In this document: positions 6,339 to 12,045 of the stretch, in pieces | How positions within the stretch are numbered: the first letter of the stretch is position 1 | Layout of the letters: the number at the start of each line of letters is the position of its first letter | Origin: Streptomyces sp. SM10 | GTDB lineage: Bacteria; Actinomycetota; Actinomycetes; Streptomycetales; Streptomycetaceae | Reading direction: 5' to 3' | Assembly (NCBI RefSeq): GCF_002910915.1 | Contig: NZ_NEUF01000177.1 | Coordinates: 1-64,000, forward strand | Length of the DNA: 64,000 nt | Position numbers and translations under genes: made by a program | The notes under the pieces: generated by a model | What the model was told of the DNA's origin: nothing | Database searches by the model: none | What the model saw: only the letters and a program-made list of their open reading frames with translations

Positions 6339-7372
6339 CGTGCCTCCGTAAGTCCGTGACGGCGGTCGCCGAGCACGCGCTCGGTGACCTGGCGCTCGGC
6401 CTCGGCCGAGAAGGGCGCGCGGCGGGCGTCCACCGCGCGGCCGGTGTCCTCGGTGACGAGGTCCATGTTGATCATCGAGGCCGCCTTCAGGCCGGCGGCG
6501 GCCGACCCGACGACCTGCTCCATGAGGTTGGCGACGTTGCCGGCCACCCGGACGCCGGGCACGTCGGTGGCTCCGGCGGGGTCGGCCGCGATGTACGTGC
6601 CGACGACGTGGTCACCCACCACCATCTCGGTGGGCACCAGACCGAGGCTCTCCAGGACCGCCGACCGCGCGGTGAAGCGCGGCTGGACCACGAGCGCGGC
6701 GAGCGGGATCACCGTGCCGCCGGCGAGCCGCACCCCGGTGAGGCGGTCGTCGGCCACCTCCAGCGAGGCCACGGCTCCGTCCAGCACCGAGATGCCCCGG
6801 GCCGCGAGCTGCTCGTACTCCTCGTCGCCGAAGTCCGCCTGCTCGTGCCGGAACAGCACCACGTCGTCGGTCCACTGCCGCCAGAGCAGCGCCTGGTGCA
6901 CGGCCATCGGGCTGAGCGCCAAAACGCCCACCGCCGTGTCCCGCACCTCCCAGCCGTGGCAGTACGGGCAGTGCAGCACCTCACGGCCCCACCGTTCGGC
7001 GAGGCCCTCCACGGGCGGCAGTTCGTCGACGAGTCCGGTGGTCACGAGGAGGTGGCGGGCCCGCACCACCCCGCCGTCCCCCCGCACGACGCGGAAGCCG
7101 TCGGGCAGCCTCTCGGCCGAGACGGCGTCGCCCCGGACGATCTCGGCACCGTAGTCCGCCGCCTCGGCCCGGCCGATGGCCAGCAGCTCCGAGGGCGGGG
7201 TCCCCTCGCGGCCCAGGTAGTTGTGCACGTGGGACGCTGGGGCGTTGCGCGGGCTGCCCGAATCGATCACGAGCACGGATCGCCGCGCCCGGGCCAGGGC
7301 GAGCGCCCCGCTCAGCCCGGCGGCGCCACCGCCGATCACCACGACGTCGTACCTCTGGTTCGTCTCGCTCAT
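6335..7372 (-). CDS. FAD/NAD(P)-dependent oxidoreductase, thioredoxin reductase-like
   Basis: Two-dinucleotide-binding flavoprotein of 345 residues. The FAD site is VVVIGGGAAGLSGALALARA from about residue 9. A redox pair Cys135-Pro-Tyr-Cys138 (HCPYCHGWEV) is placed as in thioredoxin reductases, and the C-terminal VAGNVANLMEQVVGSAAAG helix resembles the TrxB end. Genuine TrxB usually has CATC, so this is a TrxB-like protein, and its partner need not be thioredoxin. I chose ATG 7372 because AGGAGGTG lies 6 nt upstream. The open frame goes on to 7474 without a ribosome site. It overlaps the methyltransferase start by 4 nt. Confidence 0.88.
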   Translation of the reverse strand: MSETNQRYDVVVIGGGAAGLSGALALARARRSVLVIDSGSPRNAPASHVHNYLGREGTPPSELLAIGRAEAADYGAEIVRGDAVSAERLPDGFRVVRGDGGVVRARHLLVTTGLVDELPPVEGLAERWGREVLHCPYCHGWEVRDTAVGVLALSPMAVHQALLWRQWTDDVVLFRHEQADFGDEEYEQLAARGISVLDGAVASLEVADDRLTGVRLAGGTVIPLAALVVQPRFTARSAVLESLGLVPTEMVVGDHVVGTYIAADPAGATDVPGVRVAGNVANLMEQVVGSAAAGLKAASMINMDLVTEDTGRAVDARRAPFSAEAERQVTERVLGDRRHGLTEAR

Positions 7373-7518
7373 GCGGAACACCTCCTGTTGGTGGAGATGG
7401 TGCGCGCGCGGAGTCGATTCGACAAACCTGATTGCCGAAGTGGCAAACTCGTGCCGGGGCGGCCTCCCCCGCACGCCGGGAGATGGCCACTGCGACCCCG
7501 GCCATGCTGGCGGTTACT

Positions 7519-7662
7519 CCCCGGGTCCTCCCGCCGGCCCGGCGCGCTGAGGGCCGTGACCGCGAACCACACGAGGGACGCCGCCACGATCGCGCCGATC
7601 ACGGTGTCCACGTAACGGAAGGCGGTCGGGGAGAACACGGTTCCGCGCCGCGCCGCGACCAC
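7519..7662 (-). pseudogene. fragment of a DUF2975 membrane protein
   Basis: About 48 codons read ARRGTVFSPTAFRYVDTVIG followed by a hydrophobic segment AIVAASLVWFAVTALSAPG. This matches the middle of the Streptomyces DUF2975 small membrane proteins as I recall them (a run like RRGTVFSxxAxRYVDxVxGA). The N-terminal membrane segment and the C-terminal half are absent. The frame continues into non-homologous sequence towards the flavin oxidoreductase gene. The XRE-type regulator that normally follows such genes is also missing. It begins only 3 bp after the sigma-factor stop. Confidence 0.6.
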
Positions 7663-7665
7663 GGC

Positions 7666-8808
7666 CTACCGGCGATTCGCTCCGGACGGAGCCGGCAGCG
7701 TGAGGGCCGCCTCCGCGGAACCGGCGCCCCCGCTGGAACCGGCGGACACGGCGCCCCCGTTGGACCCTGCGGACGCGGCTACGTCTTCGGAACCGGCACC
7801 TCCGGCGGCCTCGGCAGAGATATCGACCGGCACCAGGAGCGCTTTCGGGGAATCGACGGCAGGCGGGTCCACAGGTCGTGCCGGAATGGACGCCGACAGG
7901 GCGACCGGACGCCGCACCGACCCGCCCGTACCGAATGCGATACCCACTTCCACGACCGTGGAATTCGCCGGTGCGTCCGCGCCCCGTGCATTCCTCGCCA
8001 TGGGCAGCGAAGTCTCCCGGACCGTCGGGCCGATGGTGTCCGGGGAGGCGCCGGGCGCCGCGGAACGTCCGCGAGCCACACGGGGAACGGGAGACCCGAC
8101 GGCGCGCGGGGCGGCGCACCCGGGACCGTCCGGCACGGTCCGCTCCCCGGGCCGGACGGAGTCGGCGGGCAGGGCCAGTCCCACCACGGCGACCGTCACC
8201 GCCGCCGATGTCGCCACCGCCTGCTGGCCGACGCCCGTACGCGGAAATCTCCGCGCGGACAGCCACAGGGTCATGGTGAGGGTGAGGGCCCCGGCCAGGG
8301 CGGTGCGCAGTGAGCGTCTGGCTCTGGCGAGCAGCGACTCGGTGGCCCGGTAGCTCAGCCCCATGACCCCGGCCACCTGTCCGACGTCCAGATCCTGGGA
8401 GTGCAGCCGGAGCGCCTCGGCCTGACGCGCGGGCAGCAGCTCCGCGCTGCGGGCGGCCAGCCACCGGGCCTCAGCCCGGTCGCAGGCCATCTCCTCCACC
8501 AGGAAGGGGTCGGCGGGAGCGGCGGAGAGGCTGTCCCTGACCTCCGCGTCCCGTGCGATCTCGCGGCGCCGGTCCGCGCAGGCACGGAGGGTCGCGCGCC
8601 TGAGCCACGGGCGGACCCTGCCGTACGGGACACCCGGGTCCTCCACCGCACGGATCATCGCCTCCTGGACGGCGTCCTCGGCCTCTTCGGCACTCGCCGA
8701 GCGGCTGCGCGCCATCTCCAGCAGTTCGTCCCGGTGGCTCCAGACGAGCTCCCACCGGTTGCCCGGACCGCGCGGTCGACGGGCGGCATGCGGGTCCCTC
8801 ACGTTCAC
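7666..8808 (-). CDS. ECF-like RNA polymerase sigma factor with membrane-spanning, low-complexity C-terminal extension
   Basis: A 380-residue protein. Residues about 20-60 (LLEMARSRSASAEEAEDAVQ and following) resemble sigma region 2. Residues about 130-172 (ALRLHSQDLDVGQVAGVMGL then SYRATESLLARARRSLR) are a region 4 helix-turn-helix, so it should direct RNA polymerase to its own promoters. It then carries two hydrophobic stretches (about 174-190 and 200-218) and a 160-residue tail rich in Ala, Gly, Ser and Pro (GGAGSEDVAASAGSNGGAVS). Ordinary ECF sigmas stop after region 4. The tail may anchor or sense at the membrane, in place of a separate anti-sigma factor; none is seen nearby. The start is GTG 8808 behind GAGGGCAGGG. 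The GG-leader peptide gene lies directly upstream on the same strand. Confidence 0.8.
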   Translation of the reverse strand: MNVRDPHAARRPRGPGNRWELVWSHRDELLEMARSRSASAEEAEDAVQEAMIRAVEDPGVPYGRVRPWLRRATLRACADRRREIARDAEVRDSLSAAPADPFLVEEMACDRAEARWLAARSAELLPARQAEALRLHSQDLDVGQVAGVMGLSYRATESLLARARRSLRTALAGALTLTMTLWLSARRFPRTGVGQQAVATSAAVTVAVVGLALPADSVRPGERTVPDGPGCAAPRAVGSPVPRVARGRSAAPGASPDTIGPTVRETSLPMARNARGADAPANSTVVEVGIAFGTGGSVRRPVALSASIPARPVDPPAVDSPKALLVPVDISAEAAGGAGSEDVAASAGSNGGAVSAGSSGGAGSAEAALTLPAPSGANRR

Positions 8809-8873
8809 AGCCCTGCCCTCTGGTCCGCGGTTTCAGGGTTCGCCGTGCGCCTGGTCATGTGCCCCACGACCCC

Positions 8874-8906
8874 TATGCCCCGCGGCCTGGACGGCATCGG
8901 GGCATA
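8874..8906 (-). terminator. hairpin between peptide gene and sigma gene
   Basis: Nine-bp perfect arms TATGCCCCG / CGGGGCATA with a further inner GCC/GGC pairing. It lies 17 bp after the peptide-gene stop. It could terminate or attenuate, giving more peptide transcript than sigma transcript. Confidence 0.6.
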
Positions 8907-8923
8907 CGGGGCTGAGCGTCGGC

Positions 8924-9148
8924 TCAGGCCGAGAGCGTGGCCGCGGAGCCGAGGCCGGCGACGCCCAGCACGTCGGCGCCGACGGCGCCCGACAGCGACG
9001 GGAGACCCGTCAGGTCGGCGTTGACGCCGCCCGCGATGCCACCGACGAGCGGCGCCTCGAGGGAGGCCGCACCGGCGAGGCCGCCGGACACGTTGTCCAG
9101 GTCTGCATCGGAGATTTCCTGGGTCTGCATCTGAGGGGCGGAGCTCAT
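8924..9148 (-). CDS. small peptide with double-glycine leader (RiPP or bacteriocin-like precursor)
   Basis: A 74-residue peptide. It begins MSSAPQMQTQEISDADLDNV and has a Gly-Gly site at about residues 22-23 (NVSGG). This leader layout is typical of peptides cut by C39-type proteases or of class II RiPP precursors. The remainder, about 51 residues (LAGAASLEAPLVGGIAGG, then VNADLTGLPSLSGAVGAD and VLGVAGLGSAATLSA), is made of Gly, Ala, Leu, Val and Ser with no cysteine, so lanthionine rings are excluded. ATG 9148 is preceded by AAGGGAA. No maturation enzyme or C39 transporter is in this window. The only close same-strand partner is the unusual sigma factor. Coding potential is good and the function is unknown. 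Confidence 0.7.
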   Translation of the reverse strand: MSSAPQMQTQEISDADLDNVSGGLAGAASLEAPLVGGIAGGVNADLTGLPSLSGAVGADVLGVAGLGSAATLSA

Positions 9149-9932
9149 GAGGTAAATTCCCTTCGCATTAATTCCGAAATGGCCCGGGCCCGCACCGTCA
9201 GGAAAGAAGGCCCTTGCCGCTTTCACGGTCACCGGCACCTTTCTCATGAGCCCGAATACTTCGGCTCATTCCTGGTGCGGCTTCCGCGATGTGAAGGATG
9301 TAAGCACGTGAGCGCATGAGGAGGCCACCCGTCCGGTAGCACCCCGCAAGGCTTTTCCGCGCCGAAAAGCCGGTGCGGTCACATTCCCCTCCGGACCGAT
9401 ACAGCTTCTTCACCGGGACGACCGACGGACCGCCCGGCGGCCAGAATGTCGAGCCGCCGCGAAAGGGACATTCTCGACTGCGGACGGGAGAGGCGGCTTC
9501 CGGGTCCGGACGGCGGTCGTCAACCGCCGCCCACCTGCGCACACGGTGTGCAGATCTGCCGCAGGAGGCCGGGGCGCTCCGCCGAGGACTCGGTCGCTGC
9601 GGGGCGGACGAACGGGCCGGCCAGGCCTGCGCGCGCGTGGGACCGAGACCGAGGGCCTCTCGTCTGGATCATCCCGGGCTCGCGGGGCCGGGCTCGCGGG
9701 CGTCACCGTCGCCCCGGCCCTCGACGAGGCGCCGCCGGGGCGCCGGCGCGTTCCTCGACGGCCCGACGAGCCGCCGCATCAACTCTCGGCTCCTGCAACC
9801 ACACTCCGGAGTTCACCCCCTGGTCCGACCCCGCGATCGAGGATGACCGTGTACGTCCGGCTGGGCGACGGAACACGCCCGCACTCCGAGCGCCTGCGGT
9901 CGCGGTGACCGAAGGCCGGACCTCGGCCGGTG
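9149..9932. other. 784-bp region without a supported gene
   Basis: Apart from the inverted repeat at 9350-9371 and an imperfect one around 9246-9265, I see no gene with a ribosome site and plausible composition. Open frames on both strands are rich in Arg and Pro, as expected for shadow frames in GC-rich DNA. It probably holds the promoter of the peptide gene and debris. Confidence 0.45.
9350..9371. repeat. inverted repeat upstream of the peptide gene
   Basis: GGCTTTT and AAAAGCC arms (7 bp) around an 8-nt loop, about 200 bp upstream of the GG-leader peptide gene. It could be a hairpin or an operator. Confidence 0.4.
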
Positions 9933-10385
9933 TCACCGGGCCGGCCGGGCGAGCGCCGGATCGGCCAGATCCAGGTGGAGCAGGTTCCCCCAGTCGTTGG
10001 CGAAGACCGCCCAAGTCCCCTCATGGCGTACGCCGACGAACGGATTCGAGGACCACAGGGCCAGGACCCACAGCGGGGAACGGCCCGAGTCGAGGCGGGC
10101 GAGGTAGCCGATGTTGCCCATCCCGCCGCCACCGCCCGACATCCAGCCGGATCCGTCCGGCAGGGCACTCTCGAAATGGAGATCCGCCTCCGTGGAGCCT
10201 TCCTCCTCGACGGCCTCGGCCACGCCGAGCGGCCCCCCGAGGTGGAAGGGAATGGTCTGTCCGGCTTGCGGGTGGTAGGCGCCGGGGCCCTCCACGTACA
10301 CCTTCAGGCCGGTGTCGTCCGGTCGGTACAGCCCGTCCCGGATCGGGAACTCGCCTGCCGCCCGTAGCCGTTCGACTATTCCCAT
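9933..10385 (-). CDS. conserved hypothetical protein
   Basis: A 150-residue soluble protein starting MGIVERLRAAGEFPIRDGLY. It has no signal peptide or membrane segment. It contains a VYVEGPGAYHP loop, a glycine run (SGWMSGGGGGMGNIGYLARL) and a Trp-rich C-terminal half (PLWVLALWSSNPFVGVRH, then GTWAVFANDWGNLLHLDLAD). I do not recognise a family. The alternating beta-rich pattern recalls small immunity-type proteins, but this is only an impression. I chose ATG 10385 for the GGGAGGCGG just upstream. It is divergent from the GH5 gene region. Confidence 0.65.
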   Translation of the reverse strand: MGIVERLRAAGEFPIRDGLYRPDDTGLKVYVEGPGAYHPQAGQTIPFHLGGPLGVAEAVEEEGSTEADLHFESALPDGSGWMSGGGGGMGNIGYLARLDSGRSPLWVLALWSSNPFVGVRHEGTWAVFANDWGNLLHLDLADPALARPAR

Positions 10386-10674: not shown

Positions 10675-12045
10675 ATGAAACGCCTACTCGCCTTACTGGC
10701 GACCTGTGCGACAGTCCTGGGCCTGACCGCCGCAGTGGCTCCCCAGGCGGTGGCCGCCACCGGCTGCACGGCCGAGTACACGGTCACCAGCCAGTGGTCG
10801 GGCGGCTTCCAGGCCGGAGTGAAGATCACCAACCTGGGCGCCCCGGTCACCGGCTGGACACTCGGATTCACCCTGCCGGACACGGGACAGAGGATCGCCC
10901 AGGGGTGGAACGCCACCTGGTCGCAGTCCGGCTCCGCGGTGACCGCCGTCGGTGTCGACTGGAACCGCACCCTGGCCACCGGCGCTTCGGCCGACGTGGG
11001 ATTCACGGGATCCTTCACGGGAGCCAACCCGAAGCCCACGGCGTTCACGCTCAACGGCGTCGCCTGTACCGGCTCCATCGAGGAGCCGCCGCCCGTCCCG
11101 GCCGACGGCACCCCCGTGGACATCAACGGCCGGCTGCACGTCTGCGGCGTGAATCTGTGCAACCGGTACGACCGCCCCGTCCAACTGCGGGGCATGAGCA
11201 CGCACGGCATCCAGTGGTTCAGCCAGTGCTACAACAACGCGTCCCTGGACGCACTGGCGCACGACTGGAAGGCCGACCTGCTGCGCACCGCCATGTACGT
11301 GCAGGAGGACGGTTACGAGACCGACCCCGCCGGCTTCACCAGCAAGGTGAACGGCCTCGTCGACATGGCCGAGTCCCGCGGTATGTACGCACTCATCGAC
11401 TTCCACACCCTCACGCCGGGCGACCCGAACTACAACCTCGACCGAGCGAAGACGTTCTTCGCGTCCGTAGCCGCCCGCAACGCCGGCAAGACGAACGTGA
11501 TCTACGAGATCGCCAACGAGCCCAACGGCGTGAGCTGGACGGGCATCAAGAGCTACGCCGAGCAGGTCATCCCGGTGATCCGGGCCGCCGACCCGGACGC
11601 CGTCGTCATCGTCGGCACCCGCGGCTGGTCCTCGCTGGGAGTCTCCGACGGCTCGAACGAGAGCGAGGTCGTCAACAACCCCGTCAACGCCACCAACATC
11701 ATGTACGCGTTCCACTTCTACGCGGCGAGCCACAAGGACAACTACCGCGCCACACTGAGCCGGGCGGCTTCACGACTGCCCCTGTTCGTGACCGAGTTCG
11801 GCACGGTGAGCGCCACCGGCGGCGGAGCGATGGACCGGGCGAGCACCACGGCCTGGCTGGACCTGCTCGACCAGCTGAAGATCAGCTACGCGAACTGGAC
11901 CTACTCCGACGCACCCGAGAGCAGCGCGGCGTTCAAGTCCGGTACGTGTGAGGGCGGCGACTACAGCAGCAGCGGCGTGCTGACCGAGTCCGGAGCACTG
12001 CTCAAGAACCGGATCAGCACTCCCGACAACTTCCCCACCGGCTGA
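10675..12045 (+). CDS. secreted CBM2-GH5 endoglucanase (cellulase)
   Basis: Endo-beta-1,4-glucanase, 456 residues, secreted. The signal peptide is residues 1-27 (MKRLLALLATCATVLGLTAA, cut after VAA). A cellulose-binding CBM2 module follows to about residue 128, with TSQWSGGFQAGVKITNLG and a disulfide pair CTAEY/GVACTG. A short acidic/Pro linker leads to a GH5 subfamily 2-like catalytic domain (LRGMSTHGIQWFSQCYNN). The putative acid/base is Glu282 in YEIANEPNG and the nucleophile is Glu374 in LFVTEFGT. AGGAGGAA lies 6 nt upstream of ATG 10675. The CebR box upstream and the hairpin downstream make it an independent cellulose-responsive unit. Confidence 0.95.
   Translation: MKRLLALLATCATVLGLTAAVAPQAVAATGCTAEYTVTSQWSGGFQAGVKITNLGAPVTGWTLGFTLPDTGQRIAQGWNATWSQSGSAVTAVGVDWNRTLATGASADVGFTGSFTGANPKPTAFTLNGVACTGSIEEPPPVPADGTPVDINGRLHVCGVNLCNRYDRPVQLRGMSTHGIQWFSQCYNNASLDALAHDWKADLLRTAMYVQEDGYETDPAGFTSKVNGLVDMAESRGMYALIDFHTLTPGDPNYNLDRAKTFFASVAARNAGKTNVIYEIANEPNGVSWTGIKSYAEQVIPVIRAADPDAVVIVGTRGWSSLGVSDGSNESEVVNNPVNATNIMYAFHFYAASHKDNYRATLSRAASRLPLFVTEFGTVSATGGGAMDRASTTAWLDLLDQLKISYANWTYSDAPESSAAFKSGTCEGGDYSSSGVLTESGALLKNRISTPDNFPTG

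What the first reader, a model, noticed from the sequence alone, without database searches (positions are those of the whole stretch)
8924..9148. GG-leader peptide gene without maturation partners: candidate new RiPP or signal peptide
Seen: a 74-residue frame with leader MQTQEISDADLDNVSGG and a Gly/Ala/Leu/Val core without cysteine, with a good ribosome site. Known: EISDADLDxVSGG-type leaders are used by C39 proteases and class II RiPP enzymes. Inference: the core cannot form lanthionine or disulfide rings, so it would be a cysteine-free bacteriocin, a lipid-interacting peptide or a signal, matured by enzymes encoded elsewhere. The pairing with a membrane-tailed sigma factor suggests a sensing loop.
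Basis: partly seen in the sequence, partly recalled or inferred. Interest (0 to 1): 0.8.

Follow-up and report, generated by a model that had tools for sequence, protein, structure and literature searches.

The report
Dispersed secreted peptide sharing one exporter
This small Streptomyces gene makes a cysteine-free, water-shy peptide that is probably cut and exported by a transporter encoded elsewhere in the genome and preceded by a near-identical control sequence, so it looks like a satellite of a known peptide family rather than an isolated new antibiotic gene.

Summary
The frame is real: minus strand 8924-9148, 74 codons, with a 23-residue double-glycine leader and a 51-residue core without Cys, Lys or Arg. 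Frame, leader and ribosome site are kept in seven orthologous loci, the window's included. It belongs to a widespread Streptomyces family (profile match in 106 of 150 genus genomes) whose members mostly sit upstream of an NHLP-type export set (HlyD, C39-ABC, second ABC); SCO0753-0756 of S. coelicolor is the known counterpart. The window copy has no such neighbours, but its genome has one PF03412 (C39) match, in such a set beside a paralogue. Of 106 peptide-bearing genomes, 105 carry the HlyD gene. Linked and unlinked copies share an upstream element, CGTGCTTTGATCC: 80 of 86 exact sites in 150 genomes lie just before a family peptide. The window has CGTGCTTACATCC. Best reading: a co-regulated satellite substrate, exported in trans and unmodified (inferred). 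The sigma gene is adjacent in 7 of 7 orthologous loci, but the whole block is syntenic, a conserved hairpin lies between, and 24 more distant sigma loci have no such peptide beside them, so a sensing loop is unsupported. The role after export is unknown; an envelope or surface role is weakly favoured.

The parts
8924..9148 (-). GG-leader peptide gene, 74 aa plus stop
9080..9148 (-). leader, 23 aa, MSSAPQMQTQEISDADLDNVSGG; predicted C39 cleavage after GG
   Evidence: alignments; cleavage itself inferred
8927..9079 (-). core, 51 aa, Gly/Ala/Leu/Val-rich, no Cys/Lys/Arg, net charge -3
9157..9164 (-). ribosome binding site GAAGGGAA
   Evidence: 7 of 7 orthologous loci; this 8-mer is in 50 of 74 upstream regions of linked family members
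9296..9308 (-). promoter/operator-like element CGTGCTTACATCC, clade variant of the family element CGTGCTTTGATCC
8870..8911 (-). conserved terminator-like hairpin between the peptide and sigma genes, with a few compensatory changes
7666..8808 (-). ECF-type sigma factor gene with a long variable C-terminal tail holding moderately hydrophobic stretches; syntenic neighbour, not shown to be a partner

Best explanation
It is an unlinked paralogue ('satellite') of the SCO0753-type peptide family of Streptomyces. The precursor is made from an upstream element of the same type as that of the paralogue-plus-exporter operon. Its leader is recognised by the NHLP-type C39 peptidase/ABC exporter encoded on another contig. 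The leader is cut after Gly-Gly and the unmodified 51-residue hydrophobic, anionic core is released outside the membrane. Outside it most likely serves the hyphal envelope or surface rather than acting as a classic cationic bacteriocin. Shown: frame, conservation, paralogy, a single PF03412 match, co-occurrence, shared 5' element. Inferred: expression, cleavage, export in trans, lack of modification, and function outside.
For: Paralogue G000:C81:18349 (47% identity, E 4.1e-6), followed by HlyD (TIGR03794, 160.4 bits against a cut-off of 156.2), C39-ABC (TIGR03796, 1007.6 against 853.3) and ABC2 (TIGR03797, 885.7 against 709.4). One PF03412 match in the genome. In 150 genus genomes, 127 single-sequence matches: 88 within 2.5 kb of the HlyD gene, 39 unlinked in 35 genomes; 35 of 35 carry HlyD against 109 of 150 overall, Fisher p 2.6e-6. 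With the profile, 105 of 106 peptide genomes have HlyD and 105 of 109 HlyD genomes have a peptide. Leaders are nearly constant while cores differ. By sequence clustering no gene recurs around the unlinked copies in a way that suggests a modification enzyme. The element is matched at 11 or more of 13 positions upstream of 74 of 74 linked and 37 of 40 unlinked copies read, against 268 of 20000 random stretches of the same loci. Genome-wide, 80 of 86 exact sites lie 41-141 nt before the start of a family profile match, reversed-motif control 0. In the window's genome CGTGCTTNNATCC occurs three times: before the linked peptide, before the window peptide, and once inside a 633-codon frame. S. coelicolor SCO0753 is the gene most raised by an activating SCO5282 allele, with envelope genes among the others, and nearly silent with its secretion genes in the null mutant (PMC6629963, passages and section 23).
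Against: No expression, cleavage or mass data for this gene. Co-occurrence is not corrected for phylogeny, and the orthologue-bearing genomes form one syntenic group. The 13-mer was picked from the same upstream regions, so only the genome-wide count is an independent check. The element before the window gene differs from the family consensus at 2 of 13 positions (one orthologue at 3). Some unlinked copies lie on short contigs, and one (G008:C196) has an internal stop. One genome (G001, 79% complete) has a weak peptide match (E 2.6e-8, not readable as a GG peptide by my pattern) but no HlyD match; four HlyD genomes (G028, G038, G121, G134) have no peptide match. AlphaFold2 gives no confident fold (mean pLDDT 54.8). 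Three LanC-like matches exist in the genome on other contigs, so modification is not excluded in principle. Other peptidase families close to C39 (such as PF13529) were not searched. SCO0753 was not itself aligned here; its identity with the family rests on gene order, length and the paper's description, and on the similar S. violaceoruber locus L143.
Confidence: 0.75

Rival explanations
1. Classic bacteriocin: the exported core kills neighbouring bacteria, alone or as one component of a multi-peptide set with the linked paralogue. (This differs from the best explanation only in the role after export.)
For: NHLP/C39 export sets are annotated as bacteriocin systems; weak sub-threshold resemblances to bacteriocin signatures; variable cores behind a fixed leader.
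Against: No Lys or Arg in 56 distinct linked cores and none in the window core, net negative; by clustering no immunity-like gene recurs beside unlinked copies; nothing above cut-off.
Confidence: 0.25
2. Signal in a loop with the adjacent sigma factor: the secreted peptide is sensed, and the membrane-tailed sigma drives peptide transcription.
For: Adjacency in 7 of 7 orthologous loci, same strand; hydrophobic stretches after the sigma domains.
Against: Adjacency is part of a wider syntenic block; 0 of 24 more distant sigma loci examined show such a peptide; S. silvae peptide without sigma; hairpin between the genes; element shared with family members elsewhere.
Confidence: 0.08
3. Relic: a duplicated precursor no longer exported or used.
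For: Separated from its transporter; orthologues in only 6 of 392 genomes, its own included.
Against: Frame, start, ribosome site, GG site and upstream element kept in 7 orthologous loci; dN/dS below 1.
Confidence: 0.05
4. Precursor of a modified RiPP made by an enzyme acting in trans.
For: EISDADLD-type leaders resemble class II leaders (recalled); LanC-like genes exist in the genome.
Against: No Cys in the window core; no such enzyme in the conserved clusters or, by clustering, beside unlinked copies; no LanC-like match on the window's contig.
Confidence: 0.07

Closest known systems
SCO0753 with SCO0754-SCO0756 of Streptomyces coelicolor (PMC6629963)
   Same: Small hydrophobic Cys-free peptide upstream of HlyD and two ABC genes; the paralogue at G000:C81 has this gene order, and the window peptide shares that paralogue's leader type and a variant of its 5' element.
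   Different: The window gene has no transporter beside it, a different core and a different chromosomal context; the passages that I saw do not mention unlinked copies.
NHLP/N11P precursor families with the TIGR03794/03796/03797 exporter (PMC2887384, passages)
   Same: Same exporter families; GG leaders with hypervariable cores; one to twelve precursors per genome, tied to the exporter by phylogenetic profile.
   Different: Those leaders are nitrile-hydratase- or Nif11-related and often lie beside modification enzymes; here the leader is 23 residues, does not match those models, and no enzyme is linked.
Unmodified GG-leader bacteriocins (Pfam PF10439, Bacteriocin_IIc; C39-ABC export)
   Same: GG leader, presumed C39 processing, presumed lack of modification.
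   Different: PF10439 score far below cut-off (11.5 against 27.1); core anionic, no Lys/Arg.

Membership tests
SCO0753-type NHLP-exported GG peptide | 23-residue leader ending EISDxxLDxVSGG with a small hydrophobic core | tested here: met
SCO0753-type NHLP-exported GG peptide | NHLP HlyD, C39-ABC and ABC2 genes in the same genome | tested here: met
SCO0753-type NHLP-exported GG peptide | gene directly upstream of the exporter operon | tested here: not met
   window copy has none nearby; its paralogue does
SCO0753-type NHLP-exported GG peptide | shared upstream element CGTGCTTTGATCC | tested here: met
   11 of 13 positions, conserved in the clade
SCO0753-type NHLP-exported GG peptide | cleaved and exported by that C39 transporter | not testable with these tools
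   needs an enzyme assay or culture mass spectrometry
NHLP or N11P precursor (TIGR03793, TIGR03798) | match to the precursor model | tested here: not met
   neither model among the three NCBIfam matches listed at E up to 10 (speed filters drop weak matches)
Class II lanthipeptide | Cys plus Ser/Thr in the core | tested here: not met
   0 Cys in the window core
Class II lanthipeptide | LanM-type synthetase beside the precursor | tested here: not met
   the three LanC-like matches of the genome are on contigs C153 and C71, none on the window's C167
Bacteriocin_IIc (PF10439) | score above gathering cut-off | tested here: not met
   11.5 against 27.1 bits
Peptide-sigma signalling pair | co-occurrence beyond one syntenic clade | tested here: not met
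   24 of 76 other sigma-bearing genomes examined

The most novel reading that the evidence does not exclude
Streptomyces run a dispersed secreted-peptide regulon: one conserved exporter and one 13-bp upstream element drive a linked peptide plus up to three unlinked satellites per genome whose leaders are fixed but whose cores diversify freely, giving each species its own blend of unmodified hydrophobic peptides on the hyphal surface. Because the linked cores and the window core have no Lys or Arg, they would escape ordinary trypsin-based proteomics.
Probability: 0.4. Interest if true: 0.7.

Novelty: new variant of a known kind. Interest (0 to 1): 0.5.

Why it matters
It turns an apparently orphan gene into a directly testable system: both a family peptide and the exporter's adaptor gene are found in 105 of 150 sampled genus genomes. 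It predicts that peptides scattered over the chromosome use one exporter, gives a 13-bp element by which to find more of them, and offers a way to learn what the SCO0753-type peptide, strongly induced along with envelope genes, is for.

Tried and rejected
Sigma partner idea: tested and not supported beyond synteny. One search also listed several GG matches in other frames near sigma relatives; I dismissed them because they lack the leader motif. Lanthipeptide idea: no Cys, no LanC-like match on the window's contig. Named protein families for the peptide: nothing above cut-off in NCBIfam or Pfam, nor for the other family peptides scanned. PDB sequences: one match, E 0.84, a Nif11-domain protein, to profile positions 10-23 only. 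Structure prediction: low confidence (mean pLDDT 54.8, pTM 0.17), so no fold search was run. Rfam on six loci: no match. The consensus sigma-70 promoter and terminator scan of 7300-10000 found nothing, although a hairpin is there: it rests on the seven-sequence comparison, where the covariation term was +0.18, that is no net bonus, and the single-sequence fold of 8800-8940 had z -1.84. The shared 5' untranslated region can fold so that CCCTT pairs with the AAGGG ribosome site, but those pairs hardly vary, so there is no covariation support. Literature: searches of the open-licence PMC library; I saw listings and opened passages of six papers (PMC6629963, PMC5733086, PMC6295645, PMC5882110, PMC6414726, PMC2887384; of the first also section 23 whole). 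In these I met nothing on unlinked copies or the shared element; other papers were not searched.

Rows dropped, lost or capped: one search scored nearly all candidates, but one search scored only 8, only 14 and only 41 candidates per genome, so their counts are lower bounds. In one search a peptide could be read by pattern in 25 of 33 unlinked loci. In one search upstream regions were read for 74 of 74 linked and 40 of 49 unlinked loci; some loci are present twice from two sources (65 distinct linked sites), and the 40 include the S. mutomycini orthologue. In one search peptides were read in 74 of 74 linked and 46 of 55 unlinked loci. The random control was drawn from loci that contain true sites, so its high-score counts are inflated. 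The match list was cut by the tool; one search used its rows down to E 1.0e-10. One search is sequence clustering with reading by eye, not a family search of each neighbour. Of the 434 relatives only the best 80 were fetched.

Full report
Observation. The ORF at 8924-9148 on the minus strand is exactly as described in extent. The true leader is 23 residues, because seven orthologous loci (the window's included) share the start MSS[A/T]PQ and GCGAAGGGAA before it. The core is 51 residues with no Cys, Lys or Arg, net charge -3 and GRAVY +1.06. In a sample of 392 genus genomes, five besides its own have an orthologue at 79-85% identity (a lower bound). The genus name Streptomyces rests on these named records. 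The ratio of mean dN to mean dS is 0.37 in the leader and 0.54 in the core.

Family. The genome has a paralogue at G000:C81:18349. It stands directly upstream of three genes that score above the NCBIfam cut-offs for the NHLP export system: HlyD-like adaptor, C39 peptidase/permease/ATPase, and a second permease/ATPase. That C39 domain is the only PF03412 match in the genome. In 150 genus genomes, 90 have a match to the window peptide at E up to 0.001. Of the 127 matches, 88 lie within 2.5 kb of the HlyD gene and 39 do not. In a named scan, 61 of the best 80 loci (of 434 relatives) have the HlyD gene beside the peptide.

Exporter in trans. All 35 genomes with unlinked copies in that count carry the HlyD gene, against 109 of 150 overall (Fisher p 2.6e-6, no correction for kinship). 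With a 32-sequence profile, 106 genomes have a peptide; 105 of them have HlyD, 4 HlyD genomes have no peptide match, and 40 genomes have neither. The exception, G001, is 79% complete with a weak match near a contig end that I could not read as a GG peptide. Of 33 further unlinked loci, 25 could be read: the leader is nearly constant and the cores fall into several unlike groups. Around unlinked copies, genes recur mainly by synteny between near relatives; the exceptions are regulator-like pairs near six loci. Linked cores have no Lys or Arg in 56 of 56 distinct sequences; 8 of 45 distinct unlinked cores have one Cys, none more.

Shared control element. Upstream of the start, linked copies carry CGTGCTTTGATCC at 11 or more of 13 positions in 74 of 74 cases, and unlinked copies in 37 of 40 read. 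The motif was chosen from these regions, so the independent check is genome-wide: over 150 genomes the exact 13-mer occurs 86 times, the reversed control 0 times. Of these, 80 lie 41-141 nt before the start of a family profile match on the same strand. The other six were read and show no GG peptide behind them. The window clade has CGTGCTTACATCC in six of seven loci and CGTGTTTACATCC in the seventh. In the window's own genome CGTGCTTNNATCC occurs three times: before the linked peptide, before the window peptide, and inside a 633-codon frame. Whether this is a sigma-factor promoter or a regulator site is not known. The bases around the linked and window elements also resemble each other, so the upstream region was probably duplicated with the gene.

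Sigma neighbour. The downstream gene has Sigma70 region 2 and region 4 above the Pfam cut-offs and a variable tail with moderately hydrophobic stretches. It sits beside the peptide in 7 of 7 orthologous loci. The oxidoreductase and methyltransferase genes of the block are conserved in 6 of 6 loci examined. Relatives of the sigma occur in 82 of 392 genomes, six of them with the orthologous peptide. Of the other 76 genomes, 24 loci were examined with about 1.5 kb on each side and show no leader of this type. A hairpin separates the two genes in all seven; two adjacent stem pairs show compensatory changes, but the overall covariation term gives no bonus. A loop is therefore unsupported, though not excluded.

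What is known. SCO0753 of S. coelicolor is described as a 77-residue, very hydrophobic, Cys-free peptide upstream of SCO0754-SCO0756, the gene most raised by an activating SCO5282 allele and almost silent in the null mutant (PMC6629963, passages and section 23). Other papers name it as part of a bacteriocin cluster or list its transporter among changed genes (PMC5733086, PMC5882110, PMC6414726, single passages). The exporter families and the association of several hypervariable precursors with one exporter were described for other precursors in PMC2887384 (passages). What is added here is the unlinked copies, their tie to the exporter, and the shared element; I met none of this within the searches named in Tried and rejected.

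Judgement. Family membership, co-occurrence and the shared element are shown. Cleavage, export in trans and lack of modification are inferred. Function outside the cell is open: the anionic, hydrophobic cores and the SCO0753 expression data favour an envelope or surface role over a classic bacteriocin, but only weakly.

Noticed in passing
L143 5861-6003 and 17 other loci: The roughly 130-nt 5' untranslated region of many family members is itself conserved and can fold so that CCCTT pairs with the AAGGG ribosome site; the pairs hardly vary, so there is no covariation proof.
   Followed up: partly
L040, L041, L043-L046, L049-L052: A cluster-4 gene (secreted-protease-like by eye, no search) lies in the same fetched stretch as the peptide and exporter in 10 of 21 loci; SCO0752 in S. 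coelicolor is listed as a secreted protease of the SigU regulon (PMC6295645, passage).
   Followed up: no
linked and unlinked peptides: Linked cores mostly end in VAGL (59 of 74) or a close variant, whereas unlinked cores of different groups often end in a Ser/Thr-containing stretch such as SASL, TTSL, TLSV or TVSF.
   Followed up: no
L207, L208, L209, L211: Four of the six off-target 13-mer sites lie shortly before other genes (oxidase- and oxygenase-like by eye), apparently two pairs of relatives, so the element may serve a few further genes.
   Followed up: partly
L036, L038, L088, L096, L097, L100: A helix-turn-helix regulator-like gene (cluster 2) lies near the peptide in 6 of 39 loci, in several cases with a short partner gene; such pairs are common in Streptomyces (recalled), so this may mean nothing.
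   Followed up: no
L122 5312-5548: The S. mutomycini orthologue has one Cys in its core, unlike the other six.
   Followed up: no
window 10675-12045: Adjacent secreted cellulase of family GH5 with a CBM2 domain, conserved in the same syntenic block.
   Followed up: no
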